Shown: piece after piece, positions 43,822-64,000 of the stretch
Position numbering within the stretch: the stretch's first letter is position 1
How the letters are laid out: each line of letters opens with the position of its first letter
Origin: Bacteroidaceae bacterium
GTDB taxonomy: Bacteria > Bacteroidota > Bacteroidia > Bacteroidales > Bacteroidaceae
Reading direction: 5' to 3'
Length of the DNA stretch: 64,000 nt
Assembly (NCBI GenBank): GCA_016280445.1
Contig: JAEEGS010000022.1
Location: 1-64,000, forward strand
Position numbers and translations under genes: made by a program
The notes under the pieces: model-generated
Database searches by the model: none
What the model was told of the DNA's origin: nothing
The model's input: only the letters and a program-made list of their open reading frames with translations

Positions 43822-46800
43822 TTACTTAATAACGATTTTCTTTCCATTGTAGATATAAACTCCCTTGTTGGTGGGTCGCTTAGGCAGCAACACGCCGCTG
43901 GTGGTGTACCAACGTCCGTTCTCCTTGTTGGAGTGCACGAAACTAATGGTTGTTGGCTCTTCGGGGCTACCCACCACAGCGTTTGCGCTGAAGGTCATCA
44001 CCTCGGATGTCGAGGCAATCAGCTCGCCGTCTCGCTCAACAGCAAACCACAAAGGTTTCTGCTCGTCTCCACCGATGCTCAGATAGAGGTTCTCGTTGGA
44101 ATCGTCGGTTCTGTTGTAGACAGCCTCGCCGCAGAGTTCACCATCAGCAAAGGCCACGAGGTGATCGCCTTCTTCCAGTTCGATGCCCTCCACGGTGGCC
44201 GATACCGTCATCGTGCAACGCTTGGGGGCGTAGGCAATGCTGGATTGGATGCTTGCCCACTCGTCGATGAAGGTGCTGTTCGGCTCGTAGAACGGATAGA
44301 GGAACGATGTTTTTGTGGCAGCTTTGCGCAACATCATGTAGCCTTCGCCAGGCTTCATGTATTGGAGGCTGCCGCGCCAGCGTCCCACACCACCTGTGAT
44401 GGTGAAGTAGGCAAACTCTTTCTGGCTCTTGATGACATCACCTGCCTGGGCTTTGTCGTAATAGTCGCTCAGAGCAGTCTCCACAGGGAGGTTCAGCATT
44501 GGTGTGTAACCGATGCCATTCCAGCCTTGTTCCAGTTCAATGGTGCGCATGTCTTTCTGCTTGATGATGAAGCCTGCGATAGGGAATTTGATGTCTTCCT
44601 GCACCTTGATGGCATAGGCCCTCTTCGGCGTGAGGAAGATGTCTGACAAGGCGTCGGTCGATAGCCATTGGCCATTGATGTATGTCAGCGCCACATCGCT
44701 GTTCATGTCGGTCAGCACGTCACCATCTTTCCAAGGCAGTCCGTCGAGCAGTTTGTGCAGATTGAAGAGTTCCTCGCTCTCCACGTTGAACGATACCCAG
44801 TTCCAGCCAGACTTCAGGTCGAAGGTCTGCACGAACTTGCTGCCACCTACGAAGCGTACAGGAGTTTCGGTGCCCAGCACATCGCCATTCTTGAACAAGA
44901 TGGTCGGTGAGAGTGCACCTCCATTGATGGATACCGAGAGTTGCAGCTCACAGCCTGTATCGAATTCCCAAAGCTTGAAAGAAAGTTCGCGGCCGCTCGA
45001 CTCATTGTCATACAGGGTCAGGTAGAGACTGCTCTCGCCTGTCTGTGCCGAGTAGTCGATGTGGGCAAATCCGTGACACACGTTGTTGCTGTCGAAAGCA
45101 CCGATGATGTCGCGAGGGTCGATGTCAATTTCATTGTTAAGATACACCTGTCCCACGATGTTCATCGAAGACATCAACAAGTCGCTGTTGACGTTCCATG
45201 CCCATTCAGGCATTTCGCCCTGCACGGTCAGATTGAGATACAATGGTTCTGACACACCTTCTTCATCGGTCAGGTAAAGAATTTCGTCATAGGAGCCCAC
45301 GTTCAGGTTCTTGTTCACCGTGGCTACGAGGGTGATGATGTCTTTGGGGCCGATGACGTCGCTGTATGTGTCCAACGTGAGCCATGTCGGGCAGTTCTGG
45401 ATGGTGTACGTGTGGCTTGTGGAACTTTTGTTGCTCAGTGCCAAAATGATTGTTGACTCGTCTTGGCCGTATGACACGGTCACCGTCTTTCGGTTGGTTA
45501 CCCATTGCAGTGCACTGCTTGTCACGTAGTAGCATGCCGTTGCGGGCGAGGCCATCGCATTGCCGTTCTTGTCCTCAATGTCGCGAATGGTCACGTAGAT
45601 GTTGCGGCGGTTGATGCGCGATGTCTGCTCATCAATGCTCACCAGCACTTGGTTGTCTTTTCCCACAAAGCTGAAACTCAAGTTTTTCAGCTCCTCGTAA
45701 GGCACAACAGGTGCGGCCTCCGATGCATCAATGTGAGCCATAACTGTTTCCACAGGCACATCGTCGGCAAACGAATAATCATACATCGGTGTCGAGGTTG
45801 GCTGTTGTGTCACAGGGTCTTTCTGGTAGCGGATGTTGCCCATGTCGTCCAGATAAATCTTCTTGCTGTACGGGTATGCCACCAGTACGAGGTCGTTATC
45901 CTTCACCCGTTCCTGACGGTCAAAGCTCAGATAAGTGAGCAGGCCTTTCTCGTCACCGTGAGGACTCTTTGTCGAGTAGCTTGTGATGAGTGACAGAGGC
46001 AGGGCTTGCTCAAAGAAGCACAATTCATCTATATTGCCACGTAGCCAGTTGCGCGTGTCGATGGTGGCCACTTTACCGTCGGCCTGCTGCTCTGTGTAGC
46101 GGGCTGCACCAATCAGAGGATATCCTCCACTGATGCCGCCCAGGCTGTCAGCCGAGAAAGTTGCACGCAATACATGATCCATGTAGATGTTGACCACTCC
46201 ACTCGAACGGTTCACCGTCATCGCGTAGTGGTGCCAGTCGTTGTCACTGTAGCTGCCCGGCACTTCCACTGCCATGCCGTGTGTGCGGTATGTTAGTTTC
46301 TCTGCCTCAAAGCCCAGACAGAACTGGTTCTGAGCACCGATGTCGTTCTTGCGTCCAGCACCATTGCTGATTAGCACACCACGGCCCTCTGCATCAGTCT
46401 TGAACCAGAACATCAGTGTGTAGTCCTGCTCAGCTGTGCGATTCATAGCATCTTCATGCAGTGCCAAACCATGGTCTTCCCAGTCAAGATGCAGCGACAT
46501 GCCGCGAGGTATAGCCCAGCCAGCATTATAGAGCTTGGCGTTGGCACCCTGCGTCTTGTCCAGCGCATAGTCACCCGTGCCTTCGTTCATTGGATAGTAA
46601 TCGACGAGTCCCATTTCATGGCCTGTCAGTCGTTTGCTACCGTAAGTGGTACCCAGTTGTCCACCTGTCAAGGCGCGATACCACAGGCGAGCCTCCATCA
46701 TGCGGCCTTTGTAGAACTGGCTCTTTTTACGGTTGGTTTCATTCGTGCGGCCGAAGATGAGTGGACCGGTACCAATGTAAGCCTCCGAGAGTGCGAATGT

Positions 46801-49800
46801 ACCCATCGCCACACCACCATTATAGAAGGTCAGCGAGTCTTTCTTCAATGCTTCGGTGTTGAGTTTCAGCTGTCCATTTTCCGTGATCCATTTTTCATTG
46901 ACGGCTTTTTTGATGACTATCGCCACTTGCGTGAATCCTGCTGGATCAATCGTCTTGGTGGAGGTGAATGACTCACCATTCACCACAGCTTTCAGTTGAT
47001 TGTCCTTTGTCAGCCACAGTTGCAACGTCTTGCCATTGTCTCCGTGAGAGAACAGTGGCATGTCGCTACCCGTCTGTTCAGGCTTGATCATCAGGTCGAT
47101 GGTCAAATCCTTGCCGCTGAAGTTGCGCTGTGCTTCGCTCTCCACGCTGCTATTTCCGTCGAACTGGATGCTCACCGACTCCGATACCCTGTCGTTGTTC
47201 ACCTCGCCCTTTACCTCGAAGTTCGTGATTCTGTTCAGGTAGTTGTACTCGATGTCCTCCGAGAAGTTGAAGATAATATTATCGCCCAGATTCAGCACAC
47301 CGTCCTTAGGCTCCGGTGTACCGAACAACTGCGGACGACGTGTATCTTTCACACCGCTCATCACCTTCGATGACGTGGTCAGGAACGAGTTGCCGTCGCG
47401 GCAATAGAGGACGGCCCGCAAATCGTAGGCCTTTTCCATCACTGTGCCCTCACCATAGAACTCGGTGTGGATGTTGCCGTTCTCAGGTATCATCTTACAA
47501 ACGCCATTGGCCTGAGCCATCAGCGTCGAGTCAGCATAGTAAGAACAAAGATTCGTCCAGTATTCGTCGCCGCGCTGCGACTCTTTGTATTGGAACTCGA
47601 TGTGGTCAAAGTTATGCTGATATTTGTTGAAGCCATCAATGGTGATAGGCATAAACCAACCACGCTTCTCATTATACTGTGCATCGGTGTTCATCACCCA
47701 CTTGTCGTTTGGCGAAGAAATGTTCACAGCGCCAGCCTGACGCAAGTAGTGTACATCGATCTTTGCGCTGTTTACCGTGTGCGCATAGTCTGAGGACGAG
47801 GCGATCTCGAATGTCAGACCCTCATAGTCAAATTCGCTGCCAGCATAGATTTCCAGGGTCTTTTCCAGCATCTGGCCAGGAGCCAGCGCCATACTTAGTC
47901 CGTTGGCATTGAGCGGTGCACCGTCCACCAAGACCTTCGCACCGTTGGGATTACTTTGCTGGTCCAGATAGAGGGTGTTCATCATCAGACTGCCGCTGAC
48001 GAGCTGAGGCTCTTCACTATCGTTGGTCAGATACATCTTGAAGCGGGCAGGGTCTCCGTATGCTACACCGCTCACGCTTTGACGGTCGAACGTGATTTTC
48101 GGGTTGCAGATTTTCTTCGTGCGCTCGTCCAAGACGGTGCCACTCTGGTAGACGAGTGTACGGCGCTCGTCCTCCCATGGGTTGCAGGTTGCGCCACCGC
48201 GAGTACGATACACGAAGCCGCGGGGATAACGTACGTTTCTCAGGTCGTTATCACGTGCAAGGTATTCCATCACGTATTCCACACCGTCGGAGAAGTTCTG
48301 GTTGGTGAACACATCGAGCAGATTGCTGGACTTGACGAGAGTGGTGTCGGTCTGGGTGCGATAGAGGTCGAAGTTCAGGTGGCTCTTCGCATCCATCGAG
48401 ATGGTGAAGCTCTCCTTGCGTGTGAAGGTCTTCGACTCCCCCGAAACATCTTTCACATCGTAGTCCATGACTGGCAGGATGCTGAACTTGAAGGTTTTGC
48501 CATAGAAGGACACTCTGGTTTCGAAGGCGGGGTTCTTGGTGTCTGACCTCTCGGTGGAACCTGCTTTGGCGGATGTGCTCAGTTTGCCCCACAGTGAACT
48601 GAGTATCTTGGAGGCTACCTTCACGCCAATGACGGCACTGCCTGCCAGCAACTTGTCACTATAGGAGTCATCGAAATAGTTGCCGCTGATGATGCCTGGC
48701 AGATGGTAGTAGTTGGAGATGGTGTAGTCGCTCTCGAATGTCTCGCCATAGGTGAGTTTCGCGCCTCCGTCTACTTCGTAGTTGGCCACATACTCGTTAG
48801 CGTTCAGTTTCTCGCGTTCGTTCTCGGCTATCATGTTCATCCATGCATAGATGATTTGGCAACGTGTGGCCACTTCGTCCTCAAGCTGTGTTTCGGTGCC
48901 TGATGGCAGGTGGATGACGTAGTTCATGCCTTCCATTTCGGGCATGGTACTGGTGTAGTAGAAGATGGTGTCGGCATTTGTGTTCACGACGGCGAAGTTC
49001 TCGCTGTCGGCATCCACCAACGAGCGATAGACAGGTTTACCTGTGATATTGGCCTGTTGCTGTGCTTCTTCGGGAGTGCCTGTGAACATCAAGGAGCGGA
49101 GTTCCATCAGTTGTTTTGGCAGCAGTTCTGTCTGGATGTGCTTCTGCGAGTGGACGAACTGCGACTGCACCTTCGGGCCATAGGCTATCGACTCATCGCG
49201 CACGAGGTGGAAGAGGCGGCCATTGTCGTCGCGACCTTCGGCGATGTGCACCAGTGTGCCGTACTTGTCGGTGGCAATGCCGATGCTGCCGCCACCCAAA
49301 CGACCTAGCATCAGTTGGTACAGGCTATCGGGGATGGCGCGGATAGTGCTCATAGGTGTCACCACGATGTTCTGCACCATGCCGATGTAGAGGTCGGCTT
49401 CTGCACCAGTCATGGTGGCCGCACTGCTGGTACTGATGTCTTCGGTCACGTTCATGGTGTAGGAGAAGGCGCGTTTACCCTCCATGGTGAACGCGTATTC
49501 AAAATCAAGTACCTTCTCGGTGTCGGCAGCATTGATGATGCCGTTGGCACTGCCCACTCCCTCGGGGGCTGCAACAGCGCCTTGGAAGTTCTCAAGTTTG
49601 GTGCCTGAGGTCCACGAAAGTGCCAGACCTGCCTTCAATTTCATGTCGAGCGTATAGGTGTATTTCAGTTTTGAACCCTTCGACAAGGTGGCTGAACTGC
49701 CGCCACCTGGTGGGTCGCGCAGGATGTCGATGAGCAGGGGAAGTCCGTCGGCCATCACATCTTTAGCACCGCCTGTGGCAAACATGTTGAGCACGTAGCC

Positions 49801-52800
49801 TTTCAGCGGTGGGGCTTCGTAGGTAGTGCCATCCTGCTCCAGGGTCATCGTCACGGTGTGCAGGGCATCCTTGCCTGTCAGCAGGCGTGTGGTCTGGTCG
49901 GCTTGCAGTTGGAAGACTCCCTGGCCGAGGCTATCGAGCTGCACCACTTCTTGATGCAGACCATTCTTCAGGCCGTTGTGTACAGTCACTTTGCCACCGC
50001 CAATCCTCACCAAATCCACTTTGGTGCTGCTGGCAGAATTATTCCACGGGTAGCGTTCCACGACGGAGAGTTGGATGGGGTATTTCCGTTCAAGACTGAA
50101 GACGGGGTAACCGAAGGTGTAGGCAGCATTCTTGGCCATAAGAGGCTCTGCTCCATGGTCATCTTCGGGTGTGGAGTCTTCGTTGCCGCGACAGGTGAGC
50201 GACAGTTCGCTCAACTGAACTTCCCAACCCTCGTAAGTGCCGATGTTTCCCCAAGTGGTGTTGAGGATTTCCAGACGGAAGAACTGGAAGAAATGGTGGT
50301 TGGGTACATCAAGATTGTACGTTTGCAGGTTGTAGGCTTCCATGCCTGCATCGTCGGTTTCCATCAACAGAGTCCATTCGTCGTCCTCGGTGGCACGTCC
50401 GAGCAGGCGCATGGCCTTGGGGTTGCGGCCATCGTAGGTCTTTGTGTCGTCGCCTGTGGTCAGGTTGAGCGTGCTGATGCTGACCAGTTTGTCGGCCTTG
50501 AAATTGACCCACCAACCATTAGTTTTGGAAACCACACACCATTTGGTGTTCGGGTTGTCATCGAACAGTTTTTCATACGATTGGGAGCCGCTCTTCTCGT
50601 GGCTTGCATCTTGAGGTGTCAGTTTCGGAGTGTGGGTGAAATTGTCAAATGGGTTGACATAATCGGTATATCCTGCCACTTTCGGATACGCCAGCGGCAC
50701 AGTCACCTTGTCACCTCCGATGGTCTGTGCCTGATAGTAACGGTCGCCAAAGTAGTCGAAGGTGTCGTAGCCCATTTGGCGGTAAGTGATTTCCACAGGA
50801 GCGTGGTAGATGCGGTTATAGCGGGCATTGTAAGTTTCCGCGGGCAGAGAGATGCTGTTTCCATCGACATCAGTGTAGGTGCCCTTGTGAGTCTGTGTCT
50901 TGGGTTCCAGACAGTCGGTCAGGTCGATGACCTCGCTCACCATGCCATCCTGGAACAACGTTGGGTAGCCCTCGCAATACACTTGCTGTACCTTCCAGCG
51001 CACTGGAGGCAGCATGAGCATGTATTCTCCTGTCACGGAGTCGGGCTTCACAATCATGCGCTTGCGCTGCATCTCGACCATGGTCTTGTGACCGCCACCA
51101 GCAGGATGATTGAAGGTGACATCACGCTTAGATTGCTCAGGGTGCAGATTGTCATACACCAGCCAAGAGGTGTTGTCGCCCTCCAGCGCCATCACCATCG
51201 TCAGGTTCTGCCCCAGGTTGTTCCTTGACAGGTTGTTGTCCAGCGGCAGGTTGCCCTGATCTTTGCCACCCACCACGCGACCCGTCAACTTCACGGTCGT
51301 TGCGTCGTAGAAGTAGGCCTGATCCACCTTGTCGGTCAGTATCACACCCTGCTCACTCTTGTAGTAGCCATCGTTTGTGAACGTGTGACCGTCCATCACC
51401 ACCTGGATGATGTTGCGGATATCGCCCAGCACCATGAACTGGCAGCGACCCTCGAAGTCGGTCTCCACATAGCCGTTCTGCGTGTTGTGCATCAGTTCGC
51501 CGTTCACCTTGAAACGTGCACCCTTCACGGGGATGCTCGTGCCGTCGTACATCACGAAGGCTGTGAACTTGAGTCCGTTGGTGATGGTGAACTCATGCAC
51601 CTGACGGTGGTTGATAGAGTCGTTGAAATTGACAGCGTAACTTCCACGCTCCAGTGCGATACCAGCCGTGCTGACAGGTGTCACATTGTAGGTGACGCTC
51701 TTTTGGCTCATGTACGATAGGTCTTCAGCCATGTAGTAACCCTTCTCGTCGGTAGTGACCTGCACCTTGGCATCGCCAGAAACGATGTCCACCATGATGC
51801 CTGGCACACCTGTACCGTCGTTGAAGCGCACATAACCTTCCAGCTTACCTGTGTGCTTGCAGGCACCTTCCTTAATCTCCGTCTCAGTAAAGCTTACACC
51901 TTCGCAGTCGTTGACACCGCGCACCATATATTCATAGTCAGCCAATGCCGACACGGTCTTGTCCTCGTAGCTCTTCTGGTCAATGCCTGTGGCAATCATC
52001 TCCCAATCCGTCTTTCCCTTCTCTCGGCGCATCACCTGGAAGTAGTCGATGGGGTTGCCATCGGTTTTCCACGTCAGCACGACGCTGCTTTGACGTGTCT
52101 CGGTCTTCAGCGTCTTGTCCACCTTGCCGATGCTCTCGTGATGGAAGTCGGGGAGTGAGGCGATGTCCATATCTGCCAACTGATTCACGATGAAACGGGG
52201 TGCTACTGATGCACTGTCGCCCACAATCTGCCAGTGGGAGCCAAGGAGATAGTGCGCTTTGCCCACGTCTGCTTTGGTCGACAAGCCGATCAGGTCGTTG
52301 GAGGGCATGACAGGCAGGGCTTCTTCCTTCTTGATTTGCCATGTACCTTCTTGCTCCTGATTCATCGCTGCGATCACCCGATTGGGGTCTTTGACATTTC
52401 TGTGGTTGGCAGATGCCATCTCTCCCCAATCGTGGACGGAAATACAATTGGTGCTCTTGGCGTTAGTGCCCCAGTTGTGGATGGCTCCATCTCCAGCACT
52501 ATCGTACCAATAGCCGATGCTGGGATGCACGATGTTAGGATAAGAACCGCACTCATAGACGCGATGCAGGGTCCAAGTGCCGTTGTGCCCCCATCCCATG
52601 ATAGCGCCTCCGTAGGATTCGCCTGTGGCAGTGAGAGTGCCATCGAACAGACAATCCGTCACGTTGACATTCGCATCATGGGCATGACCTACGAATCCAC
52701 CGACATGACCTCGGGTTGAAGTGACTTTGGCAGACACACATACTCTCTCAATGGTAACGATTGGCTTGCCATCTATGTTACCGATGAGTCCGCTCGTGTG

Positions 52801-55329
52801 GTCGCCACCTTTGATGGATCCCGTCACGTTCAAGTTTTTGATGACGACATCCGTCACATTGGCGAACGGAGCAATATAGTATGTGGTTCCTTCATCAATG
52901 TTGTTGAGGTTCAGCGTGTGGCCGCCACCGTCGAAGGTGCCTCTGTAACCGATGGACATAGGGGTGGTTTTGTCGATGCTGATGTCAGCAGCCAGCACGG
53001 CATTCACGTCTGAGTTGCCTCCAGCATCTTTCACCTTGTGCACGAAGCTGTCCCAGTCGGCCGTGTTGTTGATGACGAAGAACCCTGGATGTTCCGACGT
53101 ATACTCCATCGTGCAATAGCTGTTGACGACCGTCAGCTTACCCACATTGGGTCTTACACGCGCCCAGGTTGCGCAGCCATCGTAGTCCGTCCTGATATCA
53201 CTGGGCGTAAACATACAGTTTTCAATGAGCACCTTGCCGTCGCACCAACCCACAAAGCCACCATTACTATGACCGTAAAATCCTTTAAACGCACCATCAA
53301 ATTGGCAATTACGTATAATGGCGTTGGTCGTTGGACCCACCACGGCGACAAAGCCACCGTTGGTGGTATCGCCTCCAGCTCTGCCAGTGATACTCATGGA
53401 CGAAAGGCCATTCTCTATGATGACATTCCCGCTAACAGCGCGTCCTACCATGCCGCTTGCGAACTTCTTGGTAGTGGAGACGCTACCTGCTGTGTGAAGG
53501 TTGCGAATGGTGGCGTTGCTCACAAAGCGGAAGGGGGCGATGTATTCTTCATTCTCGATATTTGGATTGAATGTCAGTGTGTGGCCGTTTCCGTTGAAGT
53601 TTCCACGATAAGGTATACTTTCTGACTCACCAACCATCTTGCTGACCGTGATGTCGGCCATGAGCAGGGCATTCACATCTTTTGTGTTCTGAGCCGCTTT
53701 CACCTTCTCCACAAACTGATCCCAATCCTCTGCGGAATGGATTTGGAAGTAGTCGGTGTCATCCTGAATCCCGATAGGCGAGGTGCCCTGTTCCACGTAC
53801 ATGTCTATATGATAGTTCACGCACGGGCGTGTGAGGGACACAATCTTGTAGCGCGCCTCCAAATCCTGTGCGGTGAGCGTATAGATGGTGGAATCCACCT
53901 GCTCGTCTGAACGGTTGGTCGATGTGATGCGCAATTTCATCTTGGCACGTTCATCCCACACGGCACCATACTCATTGGCATAATCCCATTTGACGCGCAC
54001 GGTATAGGCCCGCTCATCTTCCCACTTGGCCGTGTAGTTGGCAAAGCGCGTCAAGTGCAGGTTTTCCAGCACGCACGAATCTTTGGCAACAGTGGAATTG
54101 TTCTCCCATCCCCACGTCTGGGTGGCCATACGGCGGATGCGGTAGGTCAGATGGTCGAGCGAACCATCCTTGAGTTGTTCCGCAGTGATGGTGTTGATGA
54201 GAGTGCTGTCTATATACTCATATTTCAGCGTTTTGATATCGAACGTCTCCGAGCCGATGGTGACAAAGTCGGACTCTTCGCCTGTCAGCGAGCGCTGAAT
54301 CTCGAAGAAGTCGGTGTCCATCAGATCGTTCGTGCCAGGATACTCGATTCCCCATTGCAACTTCACCGATGCTTTGAGGTCAAGGAGCGGTGTGGCTTTG
54401 AAGTTGATGGGCACATGCAGCATGCTCAGGTCTTGTGATTCGGATGCCACACCCTTGATGTCGTAATTGTTGTCGTCCTTGTAATCTACCACCACACGGA
54501 AATTCTTGTGAGGCAGCGTGGCATCGAGATAAATGGTGCCATTGTTCTGGTCAGTGGGCAATGAATAGGTCACCAACTTGCCGTTATCGGTCATGAATTG
54601 ATACTCGGCTTTCTGCAAACTGCTGTTAGCAATGAACCAAGGCATCTCCAGCTTGCCATCCTCGCTGTAGGAAATCGAGGCAGAAGTCAGCTGCGGATAC
54701 ACGATTCCCTGCGCATCAGGAACTGCGACGGTGCTGTTGCTCAGGGAGATGGAGTATTGTGTGTCCCATGCGAGGCCGTTGGTGTAGTCGCACTTGACGT
54801 CCCATGAGAATTTCAGTTCCTTGCCCAGCAAGTTGTAAGGAAGACGCCACACAGCAGCGATATCGTAGGTGTTGCCGTCGGGGTTTTCATACACCAAACG
54901 GCTCAATTCCCCGTCACCGCTGGTCAGTGTGAAGTGTTTGCTCGAGTTGCCCTGCGTCACCTCAATGCTTCCGCCTGCGGTGGTCTTGAACTTACACCAC
55001 AGGTCACTGTGGTCGTTATCGTGGCTGTTTTCATCCTTTCGCCACCAAAGCAGCGTTTCAGTGTGTTCTGTGCCAGCATCATCCTTCCACGTCACCTTGA
55101 GGTTACCGTTGCTCACCCAGTGGTCGATGCCATCCTCGTCATAGACAGGCACCTTGATGCTGATGGTATTCGACCCGTTGAGCATCACTTGATACCGATA
55201 GGTGTCCTCCACATTCTTTGCCAACAGTTGCAGTGGCATCAGCCACGCCAGCAGGACAAGCAACTGCATAACCATCAGGCGGAGTAGATTTACCCCTCCC
55301 ATTCGCGGAATGAAATGTTTAGCTTTCAT
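43822..55329 (-). CDS. Giant multidomain surface protein with type IX secretion tail
   Basis: A 3835-residue exported protein. After a signal peptide (VMQLLVLLAWLMPLQLLA) come beta-sandwich-rich regions, a beta-helix region with GLUG-like repeats (~530-1010; HSAEDWDQFVEKVKAA and ADWDSFVHKVKDAGG open its two halves), a fibronectin III domain (~1075-1150), a carboxypeptidase-regulatory-like domain (~1160-1210) and a discoidin/F5-8C domain (~1570-1715). A long unknown middle is followed by two LamG domains (~2730-2880 and 2940-3120), a BACON-like segment (~3280-3370) and two GAF-D modules. The end (GVYIYNGKKIVIK) is a type A sorting tail. Glycan or host adhesion is inferred. The frame is intact over 11.5 kb. 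Confidence 0.85.
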   Translation of the reverse strand: MKAKHFIPRMGGVNLLRLMVMQLLVLLAWLMPLQLLAKNVEDTYRYQVMLNGSNTISIKVPVYDEDGIDHWVSNGNLKVTWKDDAGTEHTETLLWWRKDENSHDNDHSDLWCKFKTTAGGSIEVTQGNSSKHFTLTSGDGELSRLVYENPDGNTYDIAAVWRLPYNLLGKELKFSWDVKCDYTNGLAWDTQYSISLSNSTVAVPDAQGIVYPQLTSASISYSEDGKLEMPWFIANSSLQKAEYQFMTDNGKLVTYSLPTDQNNGTIYLDATLPHKNFRVVVDYKDDNNYDIKGVASESQDLSMLHVPINFKATPLLDLKASVKLQWGIEYPGTNDLMDTDFFEIQRSLTGEESDFVTIGSETFDIKTLKYEYIDSTLINTITAEQLKDGSLDHLTYRIRRMATQTWGWENNSTVAKDSCVLENLHLTRFANYTAKWEDERAYTVRVKWDYANEYGAVWDERAKMKLRITSTNRSDEQVDSTIYTLTAQDLEARYKIVSLTRPCVNYHIDMYVEQGTSPIGIQDDTDYFQIHSAEDWDQFVEKVKAAQNTKDVNALLMADITVSKMVGESESIPYRGNFNGNGHTLTFNPNIENEEYIAPFRFVSNATIRNLHTAGSVSTTKKFASGMVGRAVSGNVIIENGLSSMSITGRAGGDTTNGGFVAVVGPTTNAIIRNCQFDGAFKGFYGHSNGGFVGWCDGKVLIENCMFTPSDIRTDYDGCATWARVRPNVGKLTVVNSYCTMEYTSEHPGFFVINNTADWDSFVHKVKDAGGNSDVNAVLAADISIDKTTPMSIGYRGTFDGGGHTLNLNNIDEGTTYYIAPFANVTDVVIKNLNVTGSIKGGDHTSGLIGNIDGKPIVTIERVCVSAKVTSTRGHVGGFVGHAHDANVNVTDCLFDGTLTATGESYGGAIMGWGHNGTWTLHRVYECGSYPNIVHPSIGYWYDSAGDGAIHNWGTNAKSTNCISVHDWGEMASANHRNVKDPNRVIAAMNQEQEGTWQIKKEEALPVMPSNDLIGLSTKADVGKAHYLLGSHWQIVGDSASVAPRFIVNQLADMDIASLPDFHHESIGKVDKTLKTETRQSSVVLTWKTDGNPIDYFQVMRREKGKTDWEMIATGIDQKSYEDKTVSALADYEYMVRGVNDCEGVSFTETEIKEGACKHTGKLEGYVRFNDGTGVPGIMVDIVSGDAKVQVTTDEKGYYMAEDLSYMSQKSVTYNVTPVSTAGIALERGSYAVNFNDSINHRQVHEFTITNGLKFTAFVMYDGTSIPVKGARFKVNGELMHNTQNGYVETDFEGRCQFMVLGDIRNIIQVVMDGHTFTNDGYYKSEQGVILTDKVDQAYFYDATTVKLTGRVVGGKDQGNLPLDNNLSRNNLGQNLTMVMALEGDNTSWLVYDNLHPEQSKRDVTFNHPAGGGHKTMVEMQRKRMIVKPDSVTGEYMLMLPPVRWKVQQVYCEGYPTLFQDGMVSEVIDLTDCLEPKTQTHKGTYTDVDGNSISLPAETYNARYNRIYHAPVEITYRQMGYDTFDYFGDRYYQAQTIGGDKVTVPLAYPKVAGYTDYVNPFDNFTHTPKLTPQDASHEKSGSQSYEKLFDDNPNTKWCVVSKTNGWWVNFKADKLVSISTLNLTTGDDTKTYDGRNPKAMRLLGRATEDDEWTLLMETDDAGMEAYNLQTYNLDVPNHHFFQFFRLEILNTTWGNIGTYEGWEVQLSELSLTCRGNEDSTPEDDHGAEPLMAKNAAYTFGYPVFSLERKYPIQLSVVERYPWNNSASSTKVDLVRIGGGKVTVHNGLKNGLHQEVVQLDSLGQGVFQLQADQTTRLLTGKDALHTVTMTLEQDGTTYEAPPLKGYVLNMFATGGAKDVMADGLPLLIDILRDPPGGGSSATLSKGSKLKYTYTLDMKLKAGLALSWTSGTKLENFQGAVAAPEGVGSANGIINAADTEKVLDFEYAFTMEGKRAFSYTMNVTEDISTSSAATMTGAEADLYIGMVQNIVVTPMSTIRAIPDSLYQLMLGRLGGGSIGIATDKYGTLVHIAEGRDDNGRLFHLVRDESIAYGPKVQSQFVHSQKHIQTELLPKQLMELRSLMFTGTPEEAQQQANITGKPVYRSLVDADSENFAVVNTNADTIFYYTSTMPEMEGMNYVIHLPSGTETQLEDEVATRCQIIYAWMNMIAENEREKLNANEYVANYEVDGGAKLTYGETFESDYTISNYYHLPGIISGNYFDDSYSDKLLAGSAVIGVKVASKILSSLWGKLSTSAKAGSTERSDTKNPAFETRVSFYGKTFKFSILPVMDYDVKDVSGESKTFTRKESFTISMDAKSHLNFDLYRTQTDTTLVKSSNLLDVFTNQNFSDGVEYVMEYLARDNDLRNVRYPRGFVYRTRGGATCNPWEDERRTLVYQSGTVLDERTKKICNPKITFDRQSVSGVAYGDPARFKMYLTNDSEEPQLVSGSLMMNTLYLDQQSNPNGAKVLVDGAPLNANGLSMALAPGQMLEKTLEIYAGSEFDYEGLTFEIASSSDYAHTVNSAKIDVHYLRQAGAVNISSPNDKWVMNTDAQYNEKRGWFMPITIDGFNKYQHNFDHIEFQYKESQRGDEYWTNLCSYYADSTLMAQANGVCKMIPENGNIHTEFYGEGTVMEKAYDLRAVLYCRDGNSFLTTSSKVMSGVKDTRRPQLFGTPEPKDGVLNLGDNIIFNFSEDIEYNYLNRITNFEVKGEVNNDRVSESVSIQFDGNSSVESEAQRNFSGKDLTIDLMIKPEQTGSDMPLFSHGDNGKTLQLWLTKDNQLKAVVNGESFTSTKTIDPAGFTQVAIVIKKAVNEKWITENGQLKLNTEALKKDSLTFYNGGVAMGTFALSEAYIGTGPLIFGRTNETNRKKSQFYKGRMMEARLWYRALTGGQLGTTYGSKRLTGHEMGLVDYYPMNEGTGDYALDKTQGANAKLYNAGWAIPRGMSLHLDWEDHGLALHEDAMNRTAEQDYTLMFWFKTDAEGRGVLISNGAGRKNDIGAQNQFCLGFEAEKLTYRTHGMAVEVPGSYSDNDWHHYAMTVNRSSGVVNIYMDHVLRATFSADSLGGISGGYPLIGAARYTEQQADGKVATIDTRNWLRGNIDELCFFEQALPLSLITSYSTKSPHGDEKGLLTYLSFDRQERVKDNDLVLVAYPYSKKIYLDDMGNIRYQKDPVTQQPTSTPMYDYSFADDVPVETVMAHIDASEAAPVVPYEELKNLSFSFVGKDNQVLVSIDEQTSRINRRNIYVTIRDIEDKNGNAMASPATACYYVTSSALQWVTNRKTVTVSYGQDESTIILALSNKSSTSHTYTIQNCPTWLTLDTYSDVIGPKDIITLVATVNKNLNVGSYDEILYLTDEEGVSEPLYLNLTVQGEMPEWAWNVNSDLLMSSMNIVGQVYLNNEIDIDPRDIIGAFDSNNVCHGFAHIDYSAQTGESSLYLTLYDNESSGRELSFKLWEFDTGCELQLSVSINGGALSPTILFKNGDVLGTETPVRFVGGSKFVQTFDLKSGWNWVSFNVESEELFNLHKLLDGLPWKDGDVLTDMNSDVALTYINGQWLSTDALSDIFLTPKRAYAIKVQEDIKFPIAGFIIKQKDMRTIELEQGWNGIGYTPMLNLPVETALSDYYDKAQAGDVIKSQKEFAYFTITGGVGRWRGSLQYMKPGEGYMMLRKAATKTSFLYPFYEPNSTFIDEWASIQSSIAYAPKRCTMTVSATVEGIELEEGDHLVAFADGELCGEAVYNRTDDSNENLYLSIGGDEQKPLWFAVERDGELIASTSEVMTFSANAVVGSPEEPTTISFVHSNKENGRWYTTSGVLLPKRPTNKGVYIYNGKKIVIK

Positions 55330-60690: not shown

Positions 60691-61839
60691 ATGGAAAAGA
60701 CTTATAAAATGGAAACCATGGAGGCAGTGGAACTGCTGAAAAGGCTGATTGCCACGCCCAGTGTGAGTCGCGACGAAACGGCTGCGGCAGATGTGCTGGA
60801 GGCATACATGAAGGAGAAAGGGCTGAACCCGCAGCGTCACGGCAATAATGTGTGGCTCACCAGCCTCCCGACCCCCGAAGGGGGAGGGCTATCGCAGTGG
60901 GAATCTGGCGACAAACGCGGTGTGAACCCTCCCCCTTCGGGGGTCGGGGGGCCTACCATCCTGCTCAATGCCCATATCGATACGGTGAAGCCTGTGGCTG
61001 GCTGGCAGCGTGACCCCTTCTGTCCGACTGTGGAGGGCGATAAGCTGTATGGGCTTGGCAGTAATGATTGCGGCGGTGGATTGGTCTCCTTGCTGATGGC
61101 TTATATTGGGCTTAATGGGGAACTCACCTCGCCCATTCAGCCCAATAACCCCATGAATGTAATCTTCCTCGCTTCTTGCGAAGAAGAGGTAAGCGGTAAG
61201 AACGGCATTGAGTCCGTCCTTCCTCTTCTGCCTAAGATTGACTTTGCCATCGTGGGTGAACCCACAGGCATGCAGCCAGCCATTGCCGAGAAGGGATTGA
61301 TGGTCATCGATGCCACTGCACACGGCAAGGCAGGTCATGCGGCTCGTAACGAGGGCGACAATGCCATCTATCATGCCATGAAGGACATCCAATGGCTGTC
61401 GGAGTGGCAGTTCCCGAAGCAGACGGAACTGCTGGGGCCTGTGAAGAATACGGTCACCATCGTCAATGCGGGCACGCAGCACAATGTTATCCCCGACACG
61501 TGCACCTTCACCATCGACGTGCGCTCAAATGAGTGCTATACGAACGAGGAAATCTTTGCCTTCTTCCAAGAACATCTCACCTCGGAACTCCATGCGCGTT
61601 CTTTCCGCCTGTCTTCCTCTAAGATAGACGAGTCGCACCCCTTTGTTCAGGCCTGCATCAAGGAAGGTCTCAAACCTTTCGGCTCTCCCACTTTGAGCGA
61701 CCAAGCCCTCATGCGCTTCCCTTCCCTCAAACTGGGGCCAGGCGACTCCTCACGTTCCCACACAGCCGACGAATACATAAAAATCAGCGAGATAGACGAT
61801 GCTATCTCGCTGTATGTGAAGTTGCTGTCTGCGCTATAA
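60691..61839 (+). CDS. argE: M20-family deacetylase (acetylornithine/succinylornithine deacetylase-like) with an in-frame repeat insertion
   Basis: A 382-residue M20 metallohydrolase, in Bacteroidetes the step releasing ornithine in arginine synthesis. Metal ligands are AHIDT (His95, Asp97), GSNDCGGG, CEEE and the C-terminal DSSRSHTADEYI. HGNNVW (50-55) should run directly into PTILLNAH, but residues ~57-88 (SLPTPEGGGLSQW...NPPPSGVGG) intervene. These are encoded by an inverted pair of C/G-rich repeats. The frame stays open. The 3' end is duplicated beyond the AAA+ gene. The insert lies in a surface-loop place, so activity may persist. Confidence 0.88.
   Translation: MEKTYKMETMEAVELLKRLIATPSVSRDETAAADVLEAYMKEKGLNPQRHGNNVWLTSLPTPEGGGLSQWESGDKRGVNPPPSGVGGPTILLNAHIDTVKPVAGWQRDPFCPTVEGDKLYGLGSNDCGGGLVSLLMAYIGLNGELTSPIQPNNPMNVIFLASCEEEVSGKNGIESVLPLLPKIDFAIVGEPTGMQPAIAEKGLMVIDATAHGKAGHAARNEGDNAIYHAMKDIQWLSEWQFPKQTELLGPVKNTVTIVNAGTQHNVIPDTCTFTIDVRSNECYTNEEIFAFFQEHLTSELHARSFRLSSSKIDESHPFVQACIKEGLKPFGSPTLSDQALMRFPSLKLGPGDSSRSHTADEYIKISEIDDAISLYVKLLSAL
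60862..60890. repeat. C/G-rich palindromic repeat inside argE, left copy
   Basis: AGCCTCCCGACCCCCGAAGG followed by GGGAGGGCT. It is the reverse complement of most of the right copy and resembles the two at 39.7 and 39.8 kb. Confidence 0.8.
60926..60953. repeat. C/G-rich palindromic repeat inside argE, right copy
   Basis: ACCCTCCCCCTTCGGGGGTC followed by GGGGGGCC. With the left copy it frames 35 bases and could form a long hairpin in DNA or RNA. Confidence 0.8.
61779..61827 (+). repeat. 49-bp direct repeat, copy within argE 3' end
   Basis: Starts AAAAATCAGCGAGATAGACG and ends GTGAAGTTGCTG. It encodes KISEIDDAISLYVKLL of ArgE and contains an inverted pair GCGAGATAG/CTATCTCGC around ACGATG. 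It is identical to 62992-63040. Confidence 0.95.
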
Positions 61840-61845
61840 ATTGTG

Positions 61846-62898
61846 TCATTTCCGTTCTTCCACCCATCTTCTGAAAAAAGGATCTTCTATTTCGTATCGG
61901 TCACTCTTGATGACATAGCCTTGTTTCATCAGTTTCTTGAGAATGCTAAAAGTGGTGCTGGTGGGTGTGGTGCGGTCGGCAAGGGGATTGGTGCCGTTGG
62001 GTTTGCTAAGTTCTTGTAGCACATGGCGGTCGGACTTGTTGAAGTTGAGCCAAAGTCGTTCGAAATCAAGATCATGGAGCATGACGAGCCTCTCGACAGC
62101 TTTGGAGATGATGTCTGTTGATTCGTGTTCGTAGTTGACCAAGTCCCATACTTGGGCAGCAATTTGTTGGGTGTAGTAGGGGTGGCAGTCGGTGAAGGCA
62201 AGAATGTCTTCTGCTAAATCGTCGTTTAGCCGTTCTGCAACATATTGTTTGAAGTCTTCATAGGGAATCTTTGCCAATCGCATCAGTTGTCCGAAATGGT
62301 AAAAGGGCGATTTTTTCTTTTCGAAGATGCTTTCCATCATTGATTCTTGGCTGCCCAAGAAAATATAGTTGATGTGCTGGTGCGTCTGCATAATGGAGCG
62401 TAGTTGTTTGTCGAATCCTTTGGCAATATTCGTCACTTCTTGAAACTCATCCAGCACGACAATGAGGCGATTCTCCGCTGTGCTTACCTTTTGCAGAAGT
62501 TCCATCGCATCCTCCAGCATGACATCGGTGTTCATGGATGGGTTGAACGAAACATCCACCGCTCCATTCATTGGGTTGGTGGAAATGGTGGGCACAATAC
62601 GGAAGTGCGTCATCAGATGCTTGAGCCTTTCTCCTGGGTAAATTCTGAAAAGGGCACTCATCAATCGGATGGTGAAATTCTGAACGCTTGTCACATTCTG
62701 CATGTTGATGATGATGTGTTTACGTTCAGTTCTTTTGAGCGCTTTGTTCACAAGGCTTGATTTGCCAAAGCGTCGAGGACTAATTAGCACAAGATGATTT
62801 TCACTCCGTAGAATCTGCTCCACGTATTGAAGCTCTTTGCTTCTGTCGGTAAAGTACTTCCCGTCTACGATAGTGCCGAATTTGAAAGGATTTTCCAT
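61846..62898 (-). CDS. AAA+ ATPase (archaeal-type, PF01637-like) with winged-helix end
   Basis: A 350-residue ATPase. NPFKFGTIVDGKYFTDRSKE opens the family; Walker A is SPRRFGKSSL (40-49), Walker B LIVVLDEFQE around 142-151, sensor-like YIFLGSQESMM, and HPYYTQQIAAQVWDL follow. The C-terminus (FSILKKLMKQGYVIKSDRYE, DPFFRRWVE) is a winged helix. These STAND-like ATPases are abundant and mobile in Bacteroidetes; the function is unknown. Visibly richer in A+T than its neighbours. It has its own promoter and lies between two perfect 49-bp repeats of the argE end. Confidence 0.88.
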   Translation of the reverse strand: MENPFKFGTIVDGKYFTDRSKELQYVEQILRSENHLVLISPRRFGKSSLVNKALKRTERKHIIINMQNVTSVQNFTIRLMSALFRIYPGERLKHLMTHFRIVPTISTNPMNGAVDVSFNPSMNTDVMLEDAMELLQKVSTAENRLIVVLDEFQEVTNIAKGFDKQLRSIMQTHQHINYIFLGSQESMMESIFEKKKSPFYHFGQLMRLAKIPYEDFKQYVAERLNDDLAEDILAFTDCHPYYTQQIAAQVWDLVNYEHESTDIISKAVERLVMLHDLDFERLWLNFNKSDRHVLQELSKPNGTNPLADRTTPTSTTFSILKKLMKQGYVIKSDRYEIEDPFFRRWVEERK

Positions 62899-62929
62899 AT
62901 TGCGATTTTTTTCGTTGCGAAAATTTTCG

Positions 62930-62937
62930 CAAAGGTA
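62930..62937 (-). promoter_or_regulatory. -7 box for the AAA+ ATPase
   Basis: TACCTTTG on the minus strand, 31 bases before the start and inside the repeat-bounded segment. CTTG at 62960-62957 or 62956-62953 is a weak -33. Confidence 0.65.
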
Positions 62938-62991
62938 TATAAAAGGTCTTGAACAAGCAAGAAATCAGACGATTTTTCTTTCATGTGGCAA

Positions 62992-63040
62992 AAAAATCAG
63001 CGAGATAGACGATGCTATCTCGCTGTATGTGAAGTTGCTG
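62992..63040 (+). repeat. 49-bp direct repeat, second copy of the argE 3' end
   Basis: Identical to 61779-61827. The frame here continues as LNSFLFSG then stop, so it is an orphan tail without the rest of argE. Identity stops sharply at both ends apart from extra A residues on the left. Confidence 0.95.
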
Positions 63041-63053
63041 AATTCATTCTTGT

Positions 63054-64000
63054 TTAGTGGGTGACGAATAGGCTGGCAATCTTGTTGAGGACGGGTGTTG
63101 AGTCAGTTACACGTTCCAATATCTGGTAATCGATGCGGTAGCCTGACAATTCTACCTCCACGGCAATGTAGTTCTTGGAAAGCCATGTGAACGTGTGCTC
63201 TTTACCGTCTGTCTTGAACGTTTTCTTACCCGTAGATTCAAATGTGTTGATAACACCCGTGCCTGTTATGCTATTTGTGGCGATGGTATGAGTGGGGGTG
63301 AAGATGGTGTATAACCAAAATGTATTCCCTTGTTGTTCGGCCTTCTGGCGGAGAATTTTTAGATCCTTCTTTGTATGGGTCAGGTCATCCATCATGCCAA
63401 TGTATCTCCATGTGCCGATGAGGGGATTCTTGGGGTCTGAAGCATTGTTAGACATGAGCGCATCAAGAATCAGTTTGGCATTCGCGGAATACTTACACGA
63501 CTCATAATATTCTGTACACCAACTGTTGTGTGGAAAGTATACGTGCCCTTCTCTCGTACTCCACCATTTCAGTGTGAAGTGGTCGGCGTTGCTGTCAAAA
63601 ACGCGTGTGGCAATGGCATCTTCGGCATCAGGATCTTCGCCTGTAAAGGAGAGAACTGTCTTGTCGTTAGATAGTAAGGAGAAACTCTGGTCGTTTACAT
63701 TCAAAGTGAGTGTCACGCTGTCTGTGCAGATCTTGTATTGGTCATACGGTTCTTTGATGATGATGTTATATTTGTCCAGCAATGCCACAAGTTTGTATAT
63801 TCCACGAGGATTCTCGCGGGCATTGGGGTCGGTCTCTCTGTATTTCTGTACAACCTGAGGCTGAAGTGCCTCGTCTGTCATTTCCTCCATCTGTTGCATG
63901 GGCTTCTCTTGTGGGTGTCGCTGGGCAAGTTGACTGATGATAAATTCATAGTAGGGGGTTCTGTCATTATCGCGCTGCCAGACCTCATACGTGCCCTTGT
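63054..64000 (-). CDS. Protein of unknown function with lipocalin-like C-terminus (5' end outside window)
   Basis: The frame is open from the right edge of the window to TAG/TGA near 63054; an internal ATG at 63899 is probably not the start because 33 in-frame codons precede it (KGTYEVWQRDNDRTPYYEFI). About 315 residues are visible. NPLIGTWRYIGMMDDLTHTK about two thirds along is the opening of a lipocalin-like calycin strand, followed by FWLYTIFTPTHTIAT and FKTDGKEHTFTWLSKNYIAV. Signal peptide and full domain set cannot be seen. Confidence 0.6.
   Translation of the reverse strand, partial: KGTYEVWQRDNDRTPYYEFIISQLAQRHPQEKPMQQMEEMTDEALQPQVVQKYRETDPNARENPRGIYKLVALLDKYNIIIKEPYDQYKICTDSVTLTLNVNDQSFSLLSNDKTVLSFTGEDPDAEDAIATRVFDSNADHFTLKWWSTREGHVYFPHNSWCTEYYESCKYSANAKLILDALMSNNASDPKNPLIGTWRYIGMMDDLTHTKKDLKILRQKAEQQGNTFWLYTIFTPTHTIATNSITGTGVINTFESTGKKTFKTDGKEHTFTWLSKNYIAVEVELSGYRIDYQILERVTDSTPVLNKIASLFVTH

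What the first reader, a model, noticed from the sequence alone, without database searches (positions are those of the whole stretch)
61779..63040. AAA+ ATPase cassette between perfect 49-bp repeats of the argE 3' end
The 49 bases encoding the ArgE C-terminus occur again 1213 bases away, just beyond a complete minus-strand ATPase gene with its own promoter and lower GC by eye. Restoration of a gene's 3' end with an orphan copy on the far side is the hallmark of integration into a gene end, yet no integrase is present. The repeat holds a 9-bp inverted pair (GCGAGATAG/CTATCTCGC), similar to a recombination or hairpin site. It could be a minimal mobile unit moved in trans, or a duplication.
Basis: partly seen in the sequence, partly recalled or inferred. 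Interest (0 to 1): 0.8.

Follow-up and report, generated by a model that had tools for sequence, protein, structure and literature searches.

The report
One-gene ATPase insert duplicates argE end
A single ATPase gene has been inserted beside argE in this gut bacterium, leaving a second copy of the end of argE on its far side; sister genes of the same family show the same pattern at other gene ends, which suggests that the family moves without a known mobile-element enzyme.

Summary
Confirmed. The 49-bp repeat (61779-61827 / 62992-63040) is the only exact direct repeat of 20 bp or more in the window. It brackets a 350-aa minus-strand AAA+ ATPase (PF01637). Of 45 genus genomes, only G000 (this one), G013 and G057 carry two copies and the ATPase at argE; the 28 other argE loci examined lack both. 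So it is an insertion with duplication of the gene end.

It recurs in the family: 14 of 71 testable relatives have flanking direct repeats of at least 60 bits, against 2 of 156 control genes, at about 10 of 50 sites. Many are the neighbour's 3' end or terminator. At four sites, 0 of 90 unoccupied loci carry the duplication, against 7 of 11 occupied. The unit appears to be promoter plus subfamily-specific palindromes plus ATPase ORF.

The 9-bp hairpin is argE coding sequence, present in relatives without the ATPase. It works like 'insertion with long target duplication', described for restriction-modification genes, in a new gene class. The mechanism is inferred; no circle or movement was observed.

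The parts
60691..61839 (+). argE-like M20 peptidase gene, target of the insertion; ends in-frame KLLSAL*
61779..61827 (+). repeat copy 1, 3' coding end of argE; holds the hairpin arms 61787-61795 / 61802-61810
61828..62991 (.). stretch between the two copies (1164 bp): argE stop, ATPase gene, upstream palindromes and promoter, 45 bp of unassigned DNA
   Evidence: the boundaries of the unit that moved are inferred
61846..62898 (-). ATPase_2 family AAA+ ATPase, 350 aa, with a predicted C-terminal winged helix
62900..62932 (-). operator-like palindromes TTGCGATTTTTTTCG (62900-62914) and TTGCGAAAATTTTCGCAA (62915-62932)
62930..62937 (-). promoter -7 like TACCTTTG of the ATPase (motif recalled)
62992..63040 (+). 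repeat copy 2, orphan copy of the argE end
63054..63998 (-). flanking gene on the far side (runs off the window); a homologue stands next to argE without an ATPase in G060

Best explanation
A one-gene unit (upstream palindromes, promoter, ATPase ORF up to about its stop codon) was inserted at the end of argE, and the insertion duplicated the gene end, so argE stayed intact and an orphan copy remained on the far side. It works like 'insertion with long target duplication', known for restriction-modification genes: no recombinase in the unit, and target copies of variable length (45 to about 240 bp here). Shown: loci with and without the insert, link of the duplication to the ATPase at four sites, recurrence at unrelated genes above controls, one copy usually near the ATPase stop codon. 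Inferred: the DNA-level event is repair-like (capture of the unit at a broken or re-replicated gene end) rather than catalysed by a dedicated integrase; afterwards gene conversion kept the copies alike, homologous exchange moved occupied alleles between species, and losses left solo palindromes. Also inferred: the ATPase binds its own upstream palindromes through its winged helix.
For: Two copies and the ATPase at argE in 3 of 45 genomes, one copy or none within 3 mismatches in the other 42. Of 31 argE loci examined, 3 of 3 occupied carry the duplication, 0 of 28 unoccupied. Four sites together (argE, acyl-CoA dehydrogenase, a 691-aa gene, azlD): duplication at 7 of 11 occupied loci and 0 of 90 unoccupied ones, 5 of the 90 having under 250 bp of downstream sequence. 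Acyl-CoA dehydrogenase site: G044 and G017 empty, G003 with a clean duplication of about 145 bp around the ATPase. Flanking repeats of 60 bits or more in 14 of 71 family genes against 2 of 156 control genes, Fisher p 2e-6; by site about 10 of 50, p 1.5e-5. In 14 of 23 loci with repeats one copy is within 35 bp of the ATPase stop codon. Both copies in G057 share a variant found in no other of 31 argE loci.
Against: The nearest relatives of this ATPase at other sites (G003, G006, G020, G046, G059) have no flanking repeat, and 57 of 71 family genes have none of 60 bits. Occupied loci without duplication exist: G059 at acyl-CoA dehydrogenase, G054 and G059 at the 691-aa gene; G010 is cut by a contig end. 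The two argE tails diverge completely after the 49 bp, and at acyl-CoA dehydrogenase in G055 the two copies are of different ancestry; both fit donor-tail integration better. In G014 the G018 allele is nearly as close (75 of 78) as the second copy (76 of 78), and in G057 the right copy is as close to G055 and G017 as to the left copy (46 of 49 each). G057 has an unrelated downstream gene at the insert and does not group with G000/G013 in a weakly supported argE tree. The genomes named are mostly metagenome assemblies.
Confidence: 0.6

Rival explanations
1. Donor-tail integration: the ATPase entered together with a donor argE end by homology-facilitated illegitimate recombination (one homologous crossover in argE, one illegitimate joint), so the two copies are a donor and a recipient allele and not a target duplication.
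For: argE tails differ beyond the 49 bp (KLLSAL* against an open frame KLLNSFLFSG). At acyl-CoA dehydrogenase in G055 the orphan copy is 94.7% like G003's orphan and 92.0% like G059's gene end but 84.1% like its own gene end. The route is described for Vibrio effector modules that leave orphan genes behind (passages of PMC5361080).
Against: It needs a donor that already has the ATPase at the same gene, so it does not explain first arrival at about 10 unrelated sites. In G057 both copies share a private variant, and in G014 the copies are 76 of 78 alike.
Confidence: 0.25
2. Site-specific integration in trans: an integrase elsewhere recognises the hairpin at the end of argE.
For: The gene end is restored, and the repeat holds a 9-bp inverted pair.
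Against: The hairpin is argE coding sequence conserved in relatives without the ATPase; repeats at other sites have no common sequence or length. Whether an integrase is encoded elsewhere in the genome was not searched.
Confidence: 0.06
3. Assembly artefact: empty and occupied alleles of a mixed population were chained in metagenome assemblies.
For: Named relatives are mostly metagenome-assembled.
Against: The same junctions are found in separate assemblies: G000 and G013 at argE, G003, G055 and G011 at acyl-CoA dehydrogenase. Control genes from the same genomes show it in 2 of 156.
Confidence: 0.05
4. An ordinary local duplication unrelated to the ATPase.
For: 2 of 156 control genes are also flanked by long repeats.
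Against: A long duplication of the argE end is seen only with the ATPase (3 of 3 against 0 of 28; one unoccupied locus, G016, has a 27-bp match at 81%).
Confidence: 0.03

Closest known systems
Insertion with long target duplication of restriction-modification genes (Nobusato et al. 2000; Furuta et al. 2010; known here only through passages of PMC1643837 and PMC3874152)
   Same: Gene unit without a recombinase, flanked by a long, variable duplication of the target (order of 100 bp), recognised by comparing related genomes.
   Different: Cargo is a single AAA+ ATPase, not a restriction-modification system; the duplicated stretches are often gene 3' ends or terminators; upstream palindromes go with the gene.
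Homology-facilitated illegitimate recombination (passages of PMC5361080; start of the abstract of PMC3240628 in the listing)
   Same: One homologous anchor and one illegitimate joint can leave an orphan copy of the recipient gene part behind the new gene.
   Different: Would make the copies two alleles; part of the data (G014, G057) fits a recipient duplication better.
Archaeal ATPase_2 proteins of known structure (2fna SSO1545, 2qen) and, more distantly, Orc1/Cdc6 and RuvB
   Same: Profile match over most of the length to 2fna (6.3e-15); best fold matches are 2qen and 2fna, then Orc1/Cdc6 and RuvB. Repeats next to the gene recall Orc1/Cdc6 at origins (recalled).
   Different: 16-18% identity to 2qen and 2fna in the fold alignment; no evidence of a replication function.
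Gene-end integration by tyrosine integrases (recalled)
   Same: Gene end restored, orphan copy on the far side.
   Different: No integrase between the copies, no fixed core sequence or length of repeat.

Membership tests
Insertion with long target duplication | Related genomes with one copy of the target and no insert | tested here: met
   0 of 90 unoccupied loci at four sites carry the duplication; 7 of 11 occupied ones do
Insertion with long target duplication | Long, variable target duplication (order of 100 bp) | tested here: met
   45 to about 240 bp among 14 of 71 family genes; the window has 49 bp
Insertion with long target duplication | Both copies derive from the recipient's own target | tested here: inconclusive
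   G057 and G014 fit, though G018 is nearly as close to the G014 copies; G055 does not fit; azlD copies in G003 differ at 10 of 75 and both are nearer to G002
Insertion with long target duplication | Restriction-modification cargo in the described cases | tested here: not met
   Cargo is an ATPase_2 protein, so I claim 'works like', not membership of the described set
PF01637 ATPase_2 | Score above the curated cut-off | tested here: met
   50.3 bits against 33.2
Integrase-type element in a gene end | Integrase gene within the element | tested here: not met
   Only the ATPase and two short overlapping ORFs lie between the copies
Integrase-type element in a gene end | Constant core site shared by different insertions | tested here: not met
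   Repeats at other sites are unrelated in sequence and length
Anti-phage defence candidate (PADLOC PDC-S01) | Match over the whole protein | tested here: inconclusive
   16 of 17 members match one PDC-S01 model, best 3.7e-9; the window protein only over residues 24-83
Anti-phage defence candidate (PADLOC PDC-S01) | Defence activity | not testable with these tools
   needs a plaque assay
Homology-facilitated illegitimate recombination | Copies are two different alleles | tested here: inconclusive
   Met at acyl-CoA dehydrogenase in G055; not in G057, whose copies share a private variant

The most novel reading that the evidence does not exclude
The ATPase is an Orc1/Cdc6-like initiator and its palindromes are iterons: the unit is a one-gene mini-replicon that can circularise, pick up a piece of host gene end and integrate by single crossover at that gene end, which yields the direct repeats; recombination between palindrome arrays (they stand on both sides of the ORF in L360, L355, L332, L366 and L296) removes the gene again and leaves solo palindromes. 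No circular form was found in the viral, phage or plasmid collections searched.
Probability: 0.06. Interest if true: 0.9.

Novelty: new variant of a known kind. Interest (0 to 1): 0.55.

Why it matters
If right, a large and little-studied ATPase family of gut Bacteroidales behaves as a mobile gene that carries no transposase or integrase, and long target duplication is not peculiar to restriction-modification genes. It offers many natural before-and-after sites for testing how genes insert without a recombinase of their own, and it ties a probable DNA-binding AAA+ protein to upstream palindromes that differ between subfamilies.

Tried and rejected
Site-specific recombination at the hairpin: rejected, since the hairpin is argE coding sequence in relatives without the ATPase.

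Palindromes as a dispersed element: the 25-base pattern is found in 13 of 45 genomes, one place each except two overlapping places in G017; most are at the ATPase, while G007, G009, G014 and G017 lack an intact ATPase there. Not a dispersed repeat.

Half-site count: 4 or more gives no excess over controls (2 of 70 against 17 of 312); 3 or more does (35 of 70 against 44 of 312), but upstream AT content also differs, 69% against 62%. In the palindrome test (37 of 72 family genes with at most 1 of 30 shuffles as good, against 16 of 120 controls) some best palindromes are terminators or the argE hairpin (for example L114, L116, L117, L156, L166, L169, L171), so it overstates operators.

Viral or plasmid carriage: 49 pattern hits in viral contigs, of which 5 encode relatives (23-30% identity); 2 phage records (22-25%); 18 plasmid records, all under 60% identity. 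No small circular form seen there.

Literature: I found no paper that describes mobility of this family, which search open-licence papers only. Nobusato 2000 was not opened; Furuta 2010 is not held. Both are known here through citing passages. PMC3240628, PMC5760070 and PMC4599002 were seen only as listings.

Weaknesses: control genes needed full 700-bp flanks, family genes 100 bp or more (71 of 72 testable); of 176 control ORFs one was removed as a family member and 19 for short flanks. One control positive (L209, 342 aa) may itself be a mobile gene and the other (L192) is flanked by dispersed repeats; both were kept. The grouping into 50 sites is by flank similarity and can join genes that share only their own upstream region; assignment of the 14 repeats to 10 sites was by hand. 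The L115 start was mis-called and the L182 ORF is short. ATPase offsets printed are wrong for reversed loci; presence is not affected.

Full report
Observation. The 49-bp repeat is real, perfect and the only exact direct repeat of 20 bp or more in the window. Copy 1 codes for the ArgE C-terminus; copy 2 lies beyond a complete convergent ATPase gene. The hairpin arms are present, but the hairpin belongs to argE: the 26-base pattern is found with up to 3 mismatches in 25 of 45 genus genomes, twice only in G000, G013 and G057.

Insertion. argE was matched in 40 of 45 genomes. DNA search shows the ATPase at argE only in G000, G013 (97% over the locus) and G057 (83%). I examined 31 of those 40 argE loci downstream: 3 occupied, all with the second copy; 28 unoccupied, none with a long second copy (L041 has only 83 bp of flank; L043 has a 27-bp match at 81%). 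G007 keeps the palindromic upstream region right after argE but lacks the ORF, which looks like a remnant. Close relatives (79-80% DNA, 69% for G046) stand at other sites in G003, G006, G020, G046 and G059 without flanking repeats, so a repeat is not obligatory.

Family pattern. A PF01637 search of the genus (list cut by the tool) and one search gave places from which 73 stretches were taken; 72 had an ORF and 71 could be tested. Direct repeats of at least 60 bits between the flanks occur in 14 of 71. Controls of 330-420 aa give 2 of 156 (2 of 58 in the smaller first set). Flank similarity groups the 72 genes into 50 sites; by hand the 14 repeats fall at 10 of them. Seen in detail, the repeats are the 3' end, terminator or region just past the neighbour's end at argE, acyl-CoA dehydrogenase, azlD, a 691-aa gene and others; at L119 it is a gene's 5' part, at L148 a weak repetitive tract (67%), and at L152 a copy of the ATPase's own upstream region. 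Among 80 loci of named records, 74 testable, 10 pass the same threshold; of these one is G013 again (L291), one is dispersed-repeat DNA (L322) and two are the palindromes themselves (L360, L355). L315 and L169 show gene end, ATPase, orphan end most plainly. No matching control was run for the named set.

Before and after. At the acyl-CoA dehydrogenase site G044 and G017 are empty: gene end, terminator, flank. G003 reads gene end, terminator, ATPase, palindromes, second gene end with terminator, then the same flank; G055 is alike, and G011 has the duplication with a different right flank. Across argE, acyl-CoA dehydrogenase and the 691-aa gene, 6 of 10 occupied loci carry a tail duplication (3 of 3, 2 of 4 with one cut by a contig end, 1 of 3) and 0 of 81 unoccupied ones; azlD adds 1 of 1 and 0 of 9. 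Together 7 of 11 against 0 of 90, five of the 90 having under 250 bp of downstream sequence. G003 at acyl-CoA dehydrogenase, not among the 30 loci of that call, is a further occupied locus with the duplication.

Anatomy of the unit. Over 23 loci with repeats (14 in the genus, 9 named), one copy lies within 35 bp of the ATPase stop codon in 14; the other lies a median of 104 bp before the start codon. That space holds the promoter and palindromes, whose sequence differs between subfamilies. Upstream palindromes exceed those of 120 control genes, with the caveat that some are terminators. In some named loci a palindrome array also follows the stop codon.

Protein. The window protein matches ATPase_2 above its cut-off. 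The family profile matches 2fna and 2qen. The model (mean pLDDT 83, pTM 0.67, 17 sequences) is nearest to these two and then to Orc1/Cdc6 and RuvB: a AAA+ core with a probable C-terminal winged helix. DNA binding is likely, not shown. Weak matches to PADLOC candidate PDC-S01 and, for 3 of 17 members, to NCBIfam DS8_antiphage leave a defence role open.

How the duplication arises. Two models remain. In target duplication both copies come from the recipient: G057, whose copies share a variant absent from the other 30 argE loci, and G014 (76 of 78, though G018 has 75 of 78) fit. In donor-tail integration the copies are two alleles: G055 fits, as do the argE tails that differ beyond 49 bp in the window. 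I favour target duplication at first arrival at a site, followed by gene conversion and exchange between species. The argE tree joins G000 with G013 (94) and leaves G057 apart with weak deep nodes; the three ATPases at argE group together, so one old insertion with many losses and transfer between species cannot be separated.

Known systems. [quoted passage not shown] The cargo differs, so I say it works like that. Homology-facilitated illegitimate recombination that leaves orphan gene parts is discussed in PMC5361080 (passages).

Verdict. A real insertion of a one-gene ATPase unit with a duplicated gene end, one of a recurrent set; a new variant of a known kind. Interest 0.55.

Noticed in passing
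60863-60952: argE holds an in-frame insert with 26-nt inverted arms (GCCTCCCGACCCCCGAAGGGGGAGGG) that G013 lacks; G057 has a similar tract nearby and a second one further on.
   Followed up: partly
L185:6120-6260 (G007 argE end), L218 (G009:C66), L212 (G014:C73): Upstream palindromes of the ATPase standing without an intact ATPase ORF: precise-looking loss in G007, solo palindromes in G009, decayed start region in G014.
   Followed up: partly
L360, L355, L332, L366, L296: Palindrome arrays stand as direct repeats on both sides of the ATPase ORF, in L355, L332, L366 and L360 in front of the next gene.
   Followed up: partly
L223 and L236, downstream of the acyl-CoA dehydrogenase gene: Empty sites hold a palindrome cluster resembling the upstream palindromes of the ATPase found there in relatives, followed by a second type (TTCACAAACTTGTGATTCACAAAGTTGTGAA).
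   Followed up: no
L315:2989-5464: Two ATPases of different subfamilies stand side by side.
   Followed up: no
L209:1583-2864: A 342-aa control gene is bracketed by a 154-bp repeat at 95%; perhaps another gene that moves this way.
   Followed up: no
G017:C67:66084-66378: Internally deleted remnant of an ATPase of the window's subfamily.
   Followed up: partly
43822-55329 (-): ORF of 3835 aa, not examined.
   Followed up: no
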